Below, piece by piece: positions 1,787-27,507 of a stretch of DNA of 35,716 nucleotides. Source of the DNA: Bacteroidota bacterium (GTDB lineage: Bacteria > Bacteroidota > Bacteroidia > Bacteroidales > FEN-979). The stretch is from assembly GCA_016868575.1 (NCBI GenBank), contig VGGL01000019.1:1-35716 (forward strand), in the 5' to 3' direction. Position 1 is the stretch's first letter; every line of letters begins with the position of its first letter. The notes beneath the pieces are model-generated. The model worked only from the letters and a program-made list of their open reading frames with translations, did not search any database and was not told where the DNA came from. Made by a program: the position numbers and the translations under genes.

Positions 1787-1928
1787 TTTTCTAATACCCC
1801 AGCGGCGCCGTCATTGCGAGGAGCGCAGCGACGAAGCAACCTTTATTTATTACGATCGACATCATAACGAGGAGCGCAGCGACGAAGCAACTTCATTGCG
1901 AGTCGCGAGCAATCGGGACGAAGCAACC
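1778..1928. repeat. Right copy of ~150-bp direct repeat
   Basis: Second copy of the sequence at 1-151, beginning inside the right arm of the hairpin at 1748-1786. The two copies bracket the GIY-YIG and metallophosphoesterase genes. It runs straight into the 73-bp tandem array. Confidence 0.9.
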
Positions 1929-2080
1929 TTTATTCCCCATCATCGAACTCAGCGACGAAGCAACTTCATTGCGAGTCCCGAGAAATCGGGACGAAGCAAC
2001 CTTTATTCCCCATCATCGAACTCAGCGACGAAGCAACTTCATTGCGAGTCCCGAGCAATCGGGACGAAGCAACCTTTATA
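1892..2080. repeat. 73-bp tandem repeat array, two full units and a partial third
   Basis: Units start with TTCATTGCGAG at 1892, 1965 and 2038, exactly 73 bp apart. Each unit holds a stem of TCCCGA/TCGGGA type, then GACGAAGCAACC, a spacer with CCCCATCATCG, and a second GACGAAGCAAC. ORF-track entries across this region (for example 1746-2081 and 1969-2358) are translations of the repeat, not genes. The region 1689-2140 holds no other gene. Confidence 0.9.
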
Positions 2081-13540: not shown

Positions 13541-14344
13541 TCAGAGTTTCAGTTTAAGTTGAATGGCACGGATGTCATCTTCCATTTTCCGGATGGATGT
13601 CATCATGGTTTTTTGTTCGGAAACTTGGTTTTCGGGCATTTCCGGACTGATATAATGGACAAACTGCCAAACTTCCCTGATTTCATTTACCTCCAGGGTG
13701 AAGGGGGGATACAGGGGGTTCAGTGAATGGAGCATTAACGTTCCTTCCGAGTCAATCCTGTTTTCCACAATTTTGAAGACAATCCCGTCATGGATGGTCA
13801 GGATGATGCAGGCATCTTTATCCTTGATGATGTTCCAGTCCTGCACGAAAACACCGGTAACGAATGCCCCATGGGGGATGGGGTGCATAGAATCACCGCT
13901 GATCTGGAAGGTACGGTATTTCTTGTTTTTCGATAGAAAGGGGAGGCGGAAAGTCGGAAGGATGCTGATGTACTCGGGATCGGCAAACCCGCTGGCATAT
14001 CCTGCTTTGGCTTTTTCGTTGACCAGTTCGATGTTATCTTCATTGTCATCGCTGACTGTAGTAGTCAGCACCCGCAGTTGTGAGCCTTTGATGAATACAT
14101 CGAATCCTTTTTCCAACTGGCGCACTTGACTTTCAGGGAGTTTGCCCAGGTCGATCTTGATCAGGGTATCGATGGCGATGCCGAAGTATCCTGAAAAGGC
14201 AGCCAGTGCTTCCAGGCCGGGCTGAGCCACGTTGTTTTCGTAGCCGCTCAGCGTGGAACGCTTCATCCGGAGGGCAAAAGCCACATCGTCCTGTGTTCTT
14301 CCCTGCCTCTTCCGCAGAAATTTGATATTGGAACTGAAATACAT
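13541..14344 (-). CDS. LexA-like XRE/S24 self-cleaving repressor
   Basis: This 267-aa protein joins an N-terminal XRE helix-turn-helix (residues 5-60, with RTQDDVAFALRMKRSTLSGYE) to a C-terminal S24 peptidase domain. The self-cleavage parts are intact: KAKAGY with a plausible Ala114-Gly115 scissile bond, SGDSM with the serine nucleophile (S152), and GIVFKIV with the general-base lysine (K191). A short charged coiled tail follows. It diverges from the Y-family polymerase gene, so it most likely represses that cassette and itself until RecA filaments trigger cleavage; this is inference from family and position. A -7 box and several AT-rich palindromes lie in the shared intergenic region. Phage CI-like repressors share this architecture, but no phage genes are nearby. 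Confidence 0.9.
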   Translation of the reverse strand: MYFSSNIKFLRKRQGRTQDDVAFALRMKRSTLSGYENNVAQPGLEALAAFSGYFGIAIDTLIKIDLGKLPESQVRQLEKGFDVFIKGSQLRVLTTTVSDDNEDNIELVNEKAKAGYASGFADPEYISILPTFRLPFLSKNKKYRTFQISGDSMHPIPHGAFVTGVFVQDWNIIKDKDACIILTIHDGIVFKIVENRIDSEGTLMLHSLNPLYPPFTLEVNEIREVWQFVHYISPEMPENQVSEQKTMMTSIRKMEDDIRAIQLKLKL

Positions 14345-14439: not shown

Positions 14440-14497
14440 CCTCACCCCCGCCTTCGGCACCCCCTCTCCTGCAAGGAGAGGGGGCGGGGGGGTGAGG
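14440..14497. repeat. Palindromic element D, copy 1
   Basis: CCTCACCCCCGCC on the left pairs with GGGGGGTGAGG on the right; the inner CCCCCTCTCCT pairs with AGGAGAGGGGG around a GCA loop. It ends 10 bp before the start codon of the Y-family polymerase, so a long GC-rich hairpin would form in that message leader. Relatives lie at 16551-16625 and 30884-30939. Confidence 0.85.
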
Positions 14498-14507
14498 TCA
14501 TCGAACG

Positions 14508-15656
14508 ATGCTCTCTATTGCCCGCCATATCGTCCACCTCGACCTCGACTCATTCTTCGTGTCGGTAGAGCGCCTGTTGAACAGCAGCCTGAACGGGAAG
14601 CCCATCATCATTGGCGGCACATCTGATCGTGGGGTGGTATCCAGTTGCAGCTATGAGGCGCGGAAGTTCGGGGTCAGTTCAGCCATGCCCATGAAGATGG
14701 CCCGCACCCTCTGTGGTGATGCTATCATCATTCGGGGCGACATGGAGCTTTACTCCAAATATTCCCACATGGTTACTGACGTCATAGCTGAGCGGGCTCC
14801 GCTGTTCGAGAAGGCTTCCATCGACGAGCATTATGTTGACCTTACCGGCATGGACCGGTTCTTCGGAACACTGAAATGGACCCGGGAGCTGAGAAAGACC
14901 ATCATCAACGAAACAGGATTGCCTATCTCTTTCGGCCTTTCTGTCAACAAAACGGTATCCAAGATCGCTACCGGGGAGGCAAAGCCAAACGGGGAACTGG
15001 AGGTGCCGGGAGAGCAGGTCAGGCCTTTCCTTTCCCCGCTGTCGATCAGCAAGATCCCCATGATCGGCGAGAAGACCTATCGCCTGTTGCGCTCCATGGG
15101 CGTGGTGACCATCGACACCCTCAGCCATATCCCACCTGAAATGATGGAAAAAGCGCTTGGGAAAAACGGAAAAGTGATCTGGGAAAAGGCCAACGGCATT
15201 GACGGAACGCCCGTCATCCCTTATTCAGAGCAAAAGTCCATGAGTACAGAAACAACCTTTGAACAGGATTCCATCGACGTGGTGAGGATGCGGGAGATCC
15301 TGGTCAAAATGGTTGAAAAACTGACCTTTCAGCTCCGGGAACAACAGAAACTGACAGCCTGCGTGACGGTGAAGATCCGCTATTCCAACTTCGACACGCA
15401 CACCCTGCAGCAGCATGTCGCGTACACCTCTTTTGATCACATCCTGATCCCCCTGGTCAAGAGCCTCTTCGACCGGCTTTACCAGCGCCGCATGCTGATC
15501 CGACTGATCGGGGTGCGGTTCAGTAAACTCGTCTCCGGCAGCCAGCAACTCAACTTGTTTGAAGACAGCACCGAGCTGGTCAACCTTTACCAGGCCATGG
15601 ACCGGATACGGATGAGATACGGGAGGAAAGCGGTGAGGAGGGGAGTTGGGATATGA
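14508..15656 (+). CDS. Y-family (DinB/Pol IV-like) translesion DNA polymerase
   Basis: This 382-aa polymerase copies past damaged bases. HLDLDSFF supplies the first catalytic aspartate (D12) and a likely steric-gate aromatic (F17), and ASIDEHYVDL supplies D106 and E107. Finger and palm motifs (SSCSYEARKFGVSSAMP, GLSVNKTVSKIA) and the thumb IPMIGEKTYRLLRSMGV are present. A sliding-clamp binding peptide QLNLF sits at about 347-351 near the C terminus. All catalytic residues are kept, which distinguishes it from ImuB, an inactive Y-family relative. It is divergent from the S24 repressor and upstream of a DnaE2-type polymerase, so an SOS-like mutagenesis cassette is likely. The stop codon runs into a tandem 8-bp repeat. 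Confidence 0.93.
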   Translation: MLSIARHIVHLDLDSFFVSVERLLNSSLNGKPIIIGGTSDRGVVSSCSYEARKFGVSSAMPMKMARTLCGDAIIIRGDMELYSKYSHMVTDVIAERAPLFEKASIDEHYVDLTGMDRFFGTLKWTRELRKTIINETGLPISFGLSVNKTVSKIATGEAKPNGELEVPGEQVRPFLSPLSISKIPMIGEKTYRLLRSMGVVTIDTLSHIPPEMMEKALGKNGKVIWEKANGIDGTPVIPYSEQKSMSTETTFEQDSIDVVRMREILVKMVEKLTFQLREQQKLTACVTVKIRYSNFDTHTLQQHVAYTSFDHILIPLVKSLFDRLYQRRMLIRLIGVRFSKLVSGSQQLNLFEDSTELVNLYQAMDRIRMRYGRKAVRRGVGI

Positions 15657-15724
15657 AAATGGTGAAATGGTGAAATGGTGAAATGATGAAATGGTGAAAT
15701 GGTGAAATGATGAAATGGTGAAAC
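15653..15724. repeat. Tandem 8-bp repeat (GAAATGGT) with 24-bp higher-order period
   Basis: About eight copies of GAAATGGT follow the polymerase stop codon, arranged as two units of (GAAATGGT)x2-GAAATGAT and a trailing copy. The array overlaps the stop codon itself. Confidence 0.9.
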
Positions 15725-15858: not shown

Positions 15859-16188
15859 ATGAAGGAAGATATTATTTCTCAGATTTACATTCTTCGTGGA
15901 AGAAAAGTGATGCTTGACAGTGATCTGGCAAGAATTTATGGTGTTAAAACAGCACGTCTAAATCAACAGGTAAGAAGAAATATAGATCGCTTTCCTGATG
16001 ATTTTATGTTTGAATTGACCAGTGAAGAATCACGAAACTTGATGTTGCAATTTGCAATATCAAGTTCACAACATGCTGAGCAATTGATGCTTGTTTTTGA
16101 AGCACTTAGAGAATTGGTTCAGAAGAAAGAAGAACCACGAACTGCTATTGGATTTATTATCAGAAAGAATGAAGGATCACAAGAATAG
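15859..16188 (+). CDS. Shortened ORF6N-domain protein (internal deletion suspected)
   Basis: The first ~65 residues match an ORF6N DNA-binding domain (ISQIYILRGRKVMLDSDLARIYGVKTARLNQQVRRN, RFPDDFMFELT). Intact proteins of this type continue with a Y-x-F-T-E-Q-G-V-A-M-L block and an R-A-F-V-x-L-R stretch, both missing here. Instead residue ~75 (FAISSSQ) jumps to HAEQLMLVFEALRELV...RTAIGF, the usual C terminus. The 109-aa protein therefore looks like an in-frame internally deleted copy. It sits between the two polymerase genes, an unrelated location, next to repeats. Function is probably lost or altered. Confidence 0.75.
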   Translation: MKEDIISQIYILRGRKVMLDSDLARIYGVKTARLNQQVRRNIDRFPDDFMFELTSEESRNLMLQFAISSSQHAEQLMLVFEALRELVQKKEEPRTAIGFIIRKNEGSQE

Positions 16189-16204: not shown

Positions 16205-19186
16205 ATGCTGTTTTTCTCACATTCGTATTATTCTCTCCGTTATGGCACCCTTTCTCCGGAACAACTTGCGGCGGAGGCGGCTGCACGTGGCATCCGGTCA
16301 TTGGCATTGACCGACATTAATAACACCACGGGAGTTCCTGATTTTATCAAGGCATGCAAGGAGCACAATATCAAACCCATTGTGGGCATTGAGTTCCGGA
16401 ATGGGAATACCTGGGTGTATACCGGTATTGCCAGGAATAACGAAGGACTGCGGGAGCTGAATGAGTTCCTGAGCGAATGCAACATTCAGGGAAAGGCTTT
16501 TCCGGAGCGGGCACCGGTGTTTCATGATGCAATTTTGGTGTATCCAATGACCTCACCCCCGCCTCCGGCACCCCCTCGGATTCCTGCTTGCGCAGGAACC
16601 TGGGAGAGGGGGCAGGGGGGTGAGGCTGTCGCCATCCGGCCATACGACCTGCCAAAACTAACCTACTCTAAGAAAAACACCGACCTGTCTCGTGCCATCA
16701 TCTATCATCCCGTCACGTTCCTCAACGATGACGGCTACTTCCTTCACCGTAACCTGCGGGCAGTGGATGAGAATATCCTCCTGAGCCGTCTGCAGCCGGA
16801 ATACCTGGCCCATCCCTCGGAAAAGATGCTTCAAATGGATGAACTCCTTGCTTTCTACAAAGATTTTCCGCAAATTGTCAGGAATACGGAACGGATTGCT
16901 GAAGCTTGTTCGATCGAATTTGACTTTTCCTCGGTCAAAAACAAGAAAACCTTCACCGGCAGCCAGTATGATGATAAGATCCTCCTGGAAAAGCTGGCCA
17001 TGGATGGCTTTGACTACCGCTATGGCAAGAAAAGCAAGCTTGCACTCAGCCGCATCCGGCATGAGTTGGAGATCATCGACCGACTCGCCTTTTCCTCTTA
17101 CTTCCTGATCACCTGGGATATCATCCGATACTCCATGTCGCGTGGCTTCTACCATGTAGGCCGGGGAAGTGGAGCCAACAGCATCGTGGCTTACTGCCTC
17201 CGGATCACCGATGTGGATCCGATCGAGTTGGATCTCTACTTCGAACGCTTTATCAACCCTAAAAGGAGCAGCCCGCCTGACTTCGACATCGATTACTCCT
17301 GGAAGGAAAGAGACGAAGTACTCGACTACATCTTCAAACGTTATGGTCGCCGGCATACCGCCCTGCTCGGGGCCATGTCAACATTTAAGGGGAGTTCCAT
17401 CTTCCGGGAGCTTGGAAAGGTTTATGGATTGCCCAAGAAGGAAATTGACGAACTGGTGGAACGCCCCGAATCGGAGGTGAACCGAAACGAAATCACCCGG
17501 ACCATCCGCTACATTGCCCGCCAGATCATTGATTTCCCCAACATCCGGTCGATCCACGCCGGTGGCGTCCTGATTTCAGAAGAACCCATCTTCAGCTATA
17601 CGGCCCTTGACATGCCACCCAAAGGATTCCAAACCACCCAGTGGGATATGTATGTGGCCGAAGACATCGGCTTTGAGAAGATCGACATCCTCAGCCAGCG
17701 GGGCATTGGACATATCCGTGAATGTGCAGAGGTCATCCTGGAAAACCGCGGGATCAGCGTTGATGTACATAAGGTGCAGGAGTTTAAGAAAGATGAGCAG
17801 GTCAGGAAACAATTGCGGGTAGGGGAGAGCATTGGATGTTTTTATATCGAGAGCCCGGCCATGCGGGGCTTGCTGAAGAAACTCCGGTGTGAAAACTACC
17901 TGACACTGGTGGCGGCCAGCTCCATCATCCGCCCCGGCGTAGCCCGGTCGGGCATGATGCGGGAGTACATCCATCGCTTTCACCATCCCAATGACTTCAC
18001 CTATCTCCACCCGGTGATGGAAGCGCAACTGAAAGAAACCTACGGCGTGATGGTCTACCAGGAAGATGTCCTGAAGGTCTGCCATCACTTTGCCGGCCTC
18101 GACCTGGCGGATGCCGATGTGCTGCGCCGGGCCATGAGCGGAAAGTACCGGGCAAAGAAAGAATTCCAGCGCATTGTCGACAAGTTCTTTGAGAATTGCA
18201 AGAACTTCGGCTATCCTGATGCGACCACCAGGGAAGTATGGCGGCAGATCGAATCCTTTGCAGGCTACTCCTTCTCCAAAGCCCATTCAGCCTCCTATGC
18301 AGCAGAGAGCTACCAAAGCCTGTTCCTGAAAGCCTACTATCCGCTGGAGTTCATGGTAGCGGTGATCAACAACTTCGGTGGATTCTATAAAACCTGGGTC
18401 TATTTCAATGAAGCCCGGCGTTGCGGCGCCAACATCGAACTTCCCTGCGTGAACAGAAGCGAATACAAGACTTCCATCCGGGGGCAAGACATCTTCACGG
18501 GATTCATCCACATCGCTAACCTGGAAAACAAACTGGCAACCGCTATCCCGGAGGAGCAGAAAAGAAATGGCACATTCCGCGACCTGGAGGACTTTATCCG
18601 CCGCCTGCAGCCGGGATTGGAACAGCTGGTGATCCTGATCCGCTGCGGGGCATTCCGTTTCACCGGGATTCCCAAAGCACGCCTCCTCTGGGATGCCCAT
18701 ATGTTCGGGAAAAACCGCAGTCCGGCACCGGAACCCCATGCCCTGTTCCATGAACCTTCCCGACCGTACACCCTGCCCGACCTGGAAAAAAACCTCACTG
18801 CTGACGCCTATGATGAAATAGAATTGATCGGCTTTCCGGTCACCATGACCTACTTCGATTTACTGGAGACTGCTTTCCGTGGTGAGATCATGGCCGGGGA
18901 AATGACCGCTGCGGTGGGAAAGAAAGTACGCATGCTCGGCCACCTTGCAGCCATCAAATATGTGAAAACAATAAAAGGGGAACTCATGCATTTTGGCACT
19001 TTTCTGGATGTTCAGGGAGAATTTTTCGACACGGTTCACTTTCCCAATACCCTGAAAGCATATCCTTTCAGGGGAAATGGGATATACCTGATCTATGGTG
19101 AGATCACCCAGGAATTTGACTTCTCCAGCCTGACGGTTGAAAAAATGGCGAAAATGCCGATACGGAAAGACCCGAGAGGGATGTAG
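16205..19186 (+). CDS. dnaE2: DnaE2-type error-prone DNA polymerase III alpha subunit
   Basis: This 993-aa C-family polymerase is shorter than replicative DnaE, as expected for DnaE2. The N-terminal PHP domain is recognisable but weakened (SHSYYSLRYGT; LALTDINNTTGV). The palm contains GRGSGANSIVAYCLRITDVDP and the catalytic PDFDIDY (358-364). The fingers contain MVYQEDVLKVCHHFAGLDLADADVLRRAMSGK and FAGYSFSKAHSASYA. A C-terminal OB-like region follows. DnaE2 acts with Y-family partners in damage-induced mutagenesis, consistent with the upstream polymerase and repressor. Residues about 116-140 (SPPPPAPPRIPACAGTWERG) are not polymerase sequence but a palindromic repeat inserted in frame. imuA is absent. 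Confidence 0.93.
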   Translation: MLFFSHSYYSLRYGTLSPEQLAAEAAARGIRSLALTDINNTTGVPDFIKACKEHNIKPIVGIEFRNGNTWVYTGIARNNEGLRELNEFLSECNIQGKAFPERAPVFHDAILVYPMTSPPPPAPPRIPACAGTWERGQGGEAVAIRPYDLPKLTYSKKNTDLSRAIIYHPVTFLNDDGYFLHRNLRAVDENILLSRLQPEYLAHPSEKMLQMDELLAFYKDFPQIVRNTERIAEACSIEFDFSSVKNKKTFTGSQYDDKILLEKLAMDGFDYRYGKKSKLALSRIRHELEIIDRLAFSSYFLITWDIIRYSMSRGFYHVGRGSGANSIVAYCLRITDVDPIELDLYFERFINPKRSSPPDFDIDYSWKERDEVLDYIFKRYGRRHTALLGAMSTFKGSSIFRELGKVYGLPKKEIDELVERPESEVNRNEITRTIRYIARQIIDFPNIRSIHAGGVLISEEPIFSYTALDMPPKGFQTTQWDMYVAEDIGFEKIDILSQRGIGHIRECAEVILENRGISVDVHKVQEFKKDEQVRKQLRVGESIGCFYIESPAMRGLLKKLRCENYLTLVAASSIIRPGVARSGMMREYIHRFHHPNDFTYLHPVMEAQLKETYGVMVYQEDVLKVCHHFAGLDLADADVLRRAMSGKYRAKKEFQRIVDKFFENCKNFGYPDATTREVWRQIESFAGYSFSKAHSASYAAESYQSLFLKAYYPLEFMVAVINNFGGFYKTWVYFNEARRCGANIELPCVNRSEYKTSIRGQDIFTGFIHIANLENKLATAIPEEQKRNGTFRDLEDFIRRLQPGLEQLVILIRCGAFRFTGIPKARLLWDAHMFGKNRSPAPEPHALFHEPSRPYTLPDLEKNLTADAYDEIELIGFPVTMTYFDLLETAFRGEIMAGEMTAAVGKKVRMLGHLAAIKYVKTIKGELMHFGTFLDVQGEFFDTVHFPNTLKAYPFRGNGIYLIYGEITQEFDFSSLTVEKMAKMPIRKDPRGM
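16551..16625. repeat. Palindromic element D, copy 2, inserted in frame inside dnaE2
   Basis: The ends CCTCACCCCCGCC and GGGGGGTGAGG are those of the element at 14440-14497. The inner part differs: a second hairpin TTCCTGCTTGCGCAGGAA occupies the middle, so one palindrome appears nested in another. The 75-bp length keeps the reading frame and adds a proline-rich segment to the PHP region of the polymerase. Confidence 0.9.
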
Positions 19187-27179: not shown

Positions 27180-27213
27180 CTGTTTTACAAGGAACAGATC
27201 GGACATCAAATAT

Positions 27214-27316
27214 CGTTGATCGGTATTCCTCTGTTTGGATCAAATTTCATCGTTGTTTCATTCCAGTGCTCCACGACCCAAGAATGAAAGATCCAAATAT
27301 CGAACATTGATCAACG
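27214..27316 (+). repeat. Hairpin element R, copy 3 (compensated arms)
   Basis: Same architecture with a 48-nt loop. The inner stem is TGGATC/GATCCA, not TGGTTC/GAACCA: both arms have changed so that pairing is kept. Confidence 0.92.
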
Positions 27317-27346
27317 AGTTCTGAGATCAGATCGGATATCAAATAT

Positions 27347-27449
27347 CGTTGATCGATATTCCTCTGTTTGGTTCAAATTTCATCGTTGTTTCATTCCAGG
27401 GCCCCACGACCTTAGAACGGAAGAACCGAATATCGAATAATGATCAACG
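27347..27449 (+). repeat. Hairpin element R, copy 4
   Basis: Starts exactly 133 bp after copy 3. The right arm reads GAACCGAATATC, leaving a U-G pair with the left arm if transcribed from the plus strand. 48-nt loop. Confidence 0.92.
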
Positions 27450-27479
27450 AGTTCTGAGATCAGATCGTCCGTCAAACAT

Positions 27480-27507
27480 CGTTGATCGATATTCCTCTGT
27501 TTGGTTC
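27480..27507 (+). repeat. Hairpin element R, copy 5 (left arm only)
   Basis: An intact 28-nt left arm exactly 133 bp after copy 4, with no right arm. It ends 23 bp before the -7 box of the aspartase-like gene. The ORF track's 27349 start translates copies 4-5 and is not a real start. Confidence 0.9.

What the first reader, a model, noticed from the sequence alone, without database searches (positions are those of the whole stretch)
16551..16625. Palindromic element inserted in frame inside a DNA polymerase gene
The ends and stem of the intergenic element at 14440-14497 recur inside dnaE2, adding about 25 residues (SPPPPAPPRIPACAGTWERG and flanks) between PHP-domain segments without breaking the frame. 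Protein-coding palindromic repeats are known in Rickettsia (RPE), but I know of no described counterpart in this lineage. The element also seems to carry a second palindrome nested in its loop.
Basis: partly seen in the sequence, partly recalled or inferred. Interest (0 to 1): 0.72.

Follow-up and report, generated by a model that had tools for sequence, protein, structure and literature searches.

The report
Repeat element translated inside error-prone polymerase
A short palindromic DNA repeat that usually sits between genes has landed in frame inside a flexible loop of a bacterial error-prone DNA polymerase, and related bacteria carry different translated repeats in that same loop; this looks like tolerated selfish DNA that turns into protein, as known from Rickettsia, in an undescribed family and at a striking hotspot.

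Summary
Observation confirmed. A 75-bp palindrome (16551-16625) lies in frame in a DnaE2-like gene and belongs to a multicopy family ('D') of its Bacteroidales MAG. It is a lineage-specific insertion: its left tip is this genome's own (CAATGA), D occurs in 24/43 genomes of the family but 2/57 of other families, and DnaE2 outside the family has a short native loop there. The 25 element codons replaced about 12 native residues; the model puts them in a disordered loop between two PHP-domain strands. At this same loop relatives carry D palindromes (two more), another palindrome, or translated 7/8-nt tandem arrays; two further DnaE2 loops are also filled. Arrays are in 28/39 family DnaE2 genes versus 0/39 outside; 9/30 Mfd, 9/30 ValS, 0/20 DnaE1, 0/30 GyrA, 0/30 UvrA. 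The pattern follows loop tolerance, not repair function. DnaE2 core is under purifying selection (dN/dS about 0.05). Best reading: mobile or slippage-born intergenic repeats that survive only where a permissive loop keeps the frame open, working like Rickettsia RPEs. In-frame REPs, including in DnaE2, were reported in other bacteria (PMC3733652), so this is a new variant of a known kind. Mover and any benefit are unknown.

The parts
16551..16625 (.). Element D copy (75 bp palindrome) inserted in frame in the DnaE2-like gene; codes T-SPPPPAPPRIPACAGTWERGQGGE-A
16545..16550 (.). Left tip CAATGA, the commonest outer tip of D copies in this genome (19 of 43 ends counted); the matching right tip is missing (GGTGAGG is followed by CTGTCG)
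16578..16600 (.). Nested palindrome GGATTCCTGC-TTGC-GCAGGAACC, body like CGTC-type REPs but without the CGTC tag
   Evidence: comparison with PMC3733652
14440..14497 (.). Intergenic D copy 10 bp upstream of the Y-family polymerase gene (58 bp, no nested palindrome)
16205..19186 (+). DnaE2-like DNA polymerase III alpha (993 aa; PHP, NTPase, finger, HHH domains) hosting the insert
18563..18577 (+). Loop 2 (about residues 787-791): no insert in the window's gene, repeat inserts in relatives
18710..18742 (+). Loop 3 (about residues 836-846): no insert here, long repeat inserts in relatives; disordered in the model
14508..15656 (+). Y-family (DinB/ImuB-like) polymerase, same presumed mutagenesis cassette
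13541..14344 (-). LexA-like HTH plus S24 peptidase regulator, divergent from the cassette
15657..15723 (.). Intergenic octamer array (AAATGGTG x8.4), the kind of array that is translated inside DnaE2 of relatives

Best explanation
The insert is a copy of a family-specific, mobile-like palindromic repeat (element D, here the composite form with a nested REP-like hairpin) that landed in an exposed, disordered loop at the PHP end of a DnaE2-like polymerase and replaced about 12 native loop residues. It survived because one reading frame through the element has no stop and the loop tolerates length and sequence change. The same loop and two others in this protein are permissive sites that have repeatedly taken up unrelated intergenic repeats (palindromes and 7/8-nt tandem arrays) across this Bacteroidales family, so translated selfish or slippage-born DNA becomes near-neutral protein sequence, working like Rickettsia RPEs. 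Shown: multicopy family, in-frame position, lineage specificity, recurrent unrelated inserts at the same loop, purifying selection on the core in relatives, disorder in the model. Inferred: neutrality, expression, and the mode of movement.
For: D copies: 24/43 genomes of the family, 2/57 others in the order. Left tip of the insert matches this genome's own copies, while G003/G014/G008 copies bear other tips. Loop 1 holds D palindromes in the window, G005 and G008, a different palindrome in G014/G018, and heptamer or octamer arrays in many others; outside the family it is short. At least 20 changes of loop content on the DnaE2 tree, the three D-bearing genes on separate branches. Arrays: DnaE2 28/39 in the family against 0/39 outside. 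Array units recur in intergenic DNA, e.g. AAAAGCG in G007. Other in-frame D or D-like copies: HATPase fragment and RlmI-like methyltransferase in the own genome; GH3 enzyme, polyferredoxin, Mfd and Eco57I-type methylase in relatives. Controls: DnaE1 0/20, GyrA 0/30, UvrA 0/30, but ValS 9/30 and Mfd 9/30. Model: residues 118-138 pLDDT under 50 between confident strands. dN/dS about 0.04-0.07 in the closest family pairs.
Against: No transposase could be linked: the three Y1_Tnp genes of the genome are not flanked by D. No close relative with an empty site is held (nearest core identity about 72%), so the exact insertion boundaries are inferred. No expression or proteome data. Nearly all genomes look like MAGs. 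Tandem arrays may have grown in place by slippage rather than been inserted.
Confidence: 0.82

Rival explanations
1. Repeats are preferentially taken up or kept in DNA repair genes because they modify repair or mutation rate, so the DnaE2 insert is adaptive (as speculated for intragenic REPs in PMC3733652).
For: DnaE2 is the most loaded gene tested (28/39) and Mfd is loaded (9/30); the literature lists DnaE2 and uvr genes. Three D palindromes at one loop out of about 155 counted copies is far above random placement (P about 2e-8 for a 120-bp target, rough Poisson).
Against: UvrA 0/30, yet the non-repair ValS 9/30; other D hosts are a sugar hydrolase, a ferredoxin and an RNA methyltransferase. 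Insert sequences are unrelated between relatives, which speaks against a selected sequence. The Poisson figure ignores that most coding sites are purged.
Confidence: 0.1
2. The proline-rich stretch is an ancestral loop that happens to resemble the intergenic element.
For: G005 has a similar TSPP...GGGEV stretch at the same place.
Against: Outgroups have a short charged loop and close clade-mates of G005 have arrays instead; the DNA is palindromic with a z-score of -4.2 and has 60-plus partial matches in the genome.
Confidence: 0.03
3. Disrupted gene or assembly artefact: the insert inactivates the polymerase or was misassembled.
For: Draft genome of 224 contigs.
Against: Frame stays open for 993 aa with the catalytic PDFDID motif; some 30 other genomes show in-frame inserts at the loop; core under purifying selection in relatives.
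Confidence: 0.04

Closest known systems
Rickettsia palindromic elements (RPE; Ogata 2000, 2002, cited in PMC10969869 and PMC3733652)
   Same: Dispersed palindrome inserted in frame in unrelated functional genes, coding a similar peptide in most copies, presumably in surface loops
   Different: Different host phylum and no sequence link tested; only about a tenth of D copies are in genes; D shares its landing loop with unrelated tandem arrays
CGTC- and GTAG-tagged REPs located inside genes (PMC3733652)
   Same: Small palindromes, mostly intergenic, some in frame, with DnaE2 and other repair genes named among the hosts; RPE-4 and RPE-6 belong to the CGTC families; the nested hairpin has a CGTC-1-like body (8-bp stem, 4-nt loop)
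   Different: D is longer and has no GTAG or CGTC tag; the nested copies lack the CGTC tag, although free copies at C10:11850 and 11917 in this genome have it; control genes argue against a repair-gene bias here
MITEs
   Same: Short, terminal inverted repeats, no coding capacity of their own
   Different: No parent insertion sequence and no clear target-site duplication found
Short heptanucleotide repeats (e.g. TAACTGA repeats of Beggiatoaceae, PMC4679880)
   Same: 7-nt units in intergenic arrays
   Different: Here many arrays are translated inside DnaE2, Mfd and ValS, with several unit types per genome

Membership tests
Rickettsia palindromic element (RPE) | Dispersed palindromic repeat of the genome | tested here: met
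Rickettsia palindromic element (RPE) | In-frame copies inside unrelated functional genes | tested here: met
   DnaE2, HATPase fragment, rRNA methyltransferase-like, GH3, polyferredoxin, Mfd, Eco57I-type methylase
Rickettsia palindromic element (RPE) | Homologous to an RPE family and found in Rickettsia | not tested
   No RPE sequence was compared; the host is Bacteroidales. Not filed as an RPE.
CGTC/GTAG REP | Tetranucleotide tag at one end of the palindrome | tested here: not met
   D ends are CCTCACC/GGTGAGG and the nested hairpin has no CGTC tag
CGTC/GTAG REP | RAYT gene flanked by the repeats (GTAG families) | tested here: not met
   Three Y1_Tnp genes, no D or nested motif alongside
MITE | Terminal inverted repeats shared with a resident insertion sequence; target-site duplication | tested here: inconclusive
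   Inverted tips CAATGA/TCATTG in many copies; no parent element searched for beyond Y1_Tnp; outer duplication not resolved
DnaE2 / ImuC error-prone polymerase | Second DnaE paralogue next to a Y-family polymerase and LexA-like regulator | tested here: met
DnaE2 / ImuC error-prone polymerase | Score above the curated error-prone polymerase model | tested here: not met
   NF004225 472 bits against a cut-off of 939; hence 'DnaE2-like'

The most novel reading that the evidence does not exclude
The PHP-end loop of this DnaE2-like polymerase is a preferred landing pad: a repeat-spreading process in this family repeatedly delivers intergenic repeats to the mutagenesis polymerase gene, and the resulting loop variation tunes the polymerase or its partners.
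Probability: 0.08. Interest if true: 0.85.

Novelty: new variant of a known kind. Interest (0 to 1): 0.52.

Why it matters
It shows, in a poorly known Bacteroidales family, selfish or slippage-born intergenic DNA becoming protein repeatedly at the same loops of a conserved enzyme, by palindromes and by 7/8-nt arrays alike. That gives dozens of natural replicates for an old question raised by Rickettsia RPEs: are such inserts merely tolerated or do they alter function. The contrast between loaded genes (DnaE2, Mfd, ValS) and clean ones (DnaE1, GyrA, UvrA) makes the tolerance model testable, and questions the earlier idea that repair genes as such are targeted.

Tried and rejected
RAYT as mover: Y1_Tnp genes found but not flanked by D. 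Repair-gene targeting: UvrA clean, ValS loaded. Ancestral loop: rejected by outgroups. A DNA search in G005 failed for query length, but the pattern search gave its two copies. Ogata 2002 is not in the library. L007, L016, L135 and L206 ORFs across D copies have no domain or look spurious and were not counted. My hand-made labels of loop content lump diverse inserts as 'other', so 20 changes is rough.

Full report
What is there. The window is contig 19 of a 2.84-Mb draft genome of 224 contigs, Bacteroidales-like by its named DnaE2 relatives. Bases 16551-16625 form a 75-bp palindrome whose ends and stem match the intergenic copy at 14440-14497. It lies in frame in a 993-aa ORF (16205-19186) with PHP, NTPase, finger and HHH domains of DNA polymerase III alpha; the genome has a separate DnaE1 of 1168 aa. 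A Y-family polymerase gene and a divergent LexA-like regulator lie beside it, so the gene is most likely a DnaE2/ImuC-type polymerase, although it scores below the curated error-prone model. The insert folds far better than shuffles (z = -4.2).

The element. The own genome holds 67 BLAST matches to the insert and 18 hits to a strict end-plus-stem pattern against none for the reversed control. I call it element D. Read across copies it runs CAATGACCTCACCCCC...CCCCCTCTCC-loop-GGAGAGGGGG...GGGGGTGAGGTCATTG. In the dnaE2 copy the inner hairpin is replaced by a second palindrome, GGATTCCTGC-TTGC-GCAGGAACC; several other own-genome loci have the same body inside a D or D-like G/C-rich stem, and two free copies carry a CGTC tag, so the composite is recurrent and the inner part resembles CGTC-type REPs. 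D is nearly confined to this family: 24 of 43 genomes against 2 of 57 from other families of the order. Outer tips differ between genomes (CAATGA here, TTCA in G003 and G014, TCAG in G008), and the dnaE2 copy has this genome's tip on its left, so the donor was probably local.

Insertion, not an ancestral loop. I compared about 75 DnaE2 proteins. Outside the family the site has a short loop (median 16 residues in the aligned segment); the window has 29. The element's 25 codons therefore replaced about 12 residues, a net gain of about 13. In the AlphaFold model (mean pLDDT 80) residues 118-138 fall under 50 between confident strands 109-114 and 140-144; the fold matches Pol III alpha.

The wider pattern. 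In relatives the same loop holds other repeats, in frame: D palindromes in G005 and G008; another palindrome in G014 and G018; octamer arrays (GCGAAATG, CATCAACT) and heptamer arrays (TCGTCAA, CCGTCAC, AAAAGCG) in many others. Two more loops, near residues 787 and 842, are likewise filled. On a tree of the core, loop content changes at least 20 times by hand-assigned label and the three D-bearing genes lie apart. Period-7/8 arrays occur in 28 of 39 family DnaE2 genes and 0 of 39 others. The units recur in intergenic DNA: in 179 kb of G007, 11 of 13 arrays were intergenic, mostly AAAAGCG, the unit also found in its dnaE2 loop. Core dN/dS in the closest family pairs is about 0.04-0.07, so the proteins look functional.

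Other genes and frames. Of 40 D places fetched from four relatives, four are in frame in genes with recognisable domains: a GH3 enzyme, a polyferredoxin, Mfd and an Eco57I-type methylase. In the own genome a HATPase fragment (122-codon ORF, possibly a broken gene) and an RlmI-like methyltransferase carry D-like copies. Six of nine coding copies, counting the three DnaE2 genes, use the frame giving SPP...ERGxGGE(V/A); three use the frame giving TPxPP/SP...EGE (by inspection). A full CAATGA tip closes one of the other frames with TGA, which may explain the bias.

Tolerance or targeting. Arrays are absent from DnaE1 (0/20) and GyrA (0/30) and UvrA (0/30), present in Mfd (9/30) and ValS (9/30). 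A clean repair gene and a loaded tRNA synthetase argue that loop tolerance decides, not repair function. DnaE2 is still the most loaded gene tested, significantly above Mfd (P = 0.0007), and I cannot exclude a preference. These P values treat related genomes as independent.

Known or new. Rickettsia RPEs are the model case (PMC10969869). PMC3733652 described in-frame CGTC and GTAG REPs in several bacteria, naming DnaE2 among the hosts, and suggested both flexible loops and a possible effect on repair. This case therefore belongs to a known kind; it is a new variant by its untagged family-specific element, its host lineage, and the repeated filling of the same loops by unrelated repeats. My literature search covered only open-licence papers.

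Limits. The genomes are drafts, mostly MAGs; no same-genus relative is held; no mover was found; and arrays may have grown in place by slippage rather than arrived from elsewhere.

Noticed in passing
window 15859-16188: A small ORF6N-domain gene sits between the Y-family polymerase and the DnaE2-like gene, splitting the presumed mutagenesis cassette.
   Followed up: no
window 1877-2079: Tandem array with a 73-bp unit containing a GCGACGAAGCAA-type repeat (2.8 copies).
   Followed up: no
window 27195-27507: Tandem array with a 133-bp unit, 2.4 copies, overlapping the start of a lyase-like ORF.
   Followed up: no
L331-L360 (ValS loci of the family): ValS of 9 of 30 family genomes carries short heptamer arrays in one or two loops (e.g. 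SPVTSHESRVTSHESRVT in L356).
   Followed up: partly
L241-L270 (Mfd loci of the family): Mfd shows two variable linkers filled with translated arrays or, in G008 (L264), a double palindrome.
   Followed up: partly
   Followed up: no
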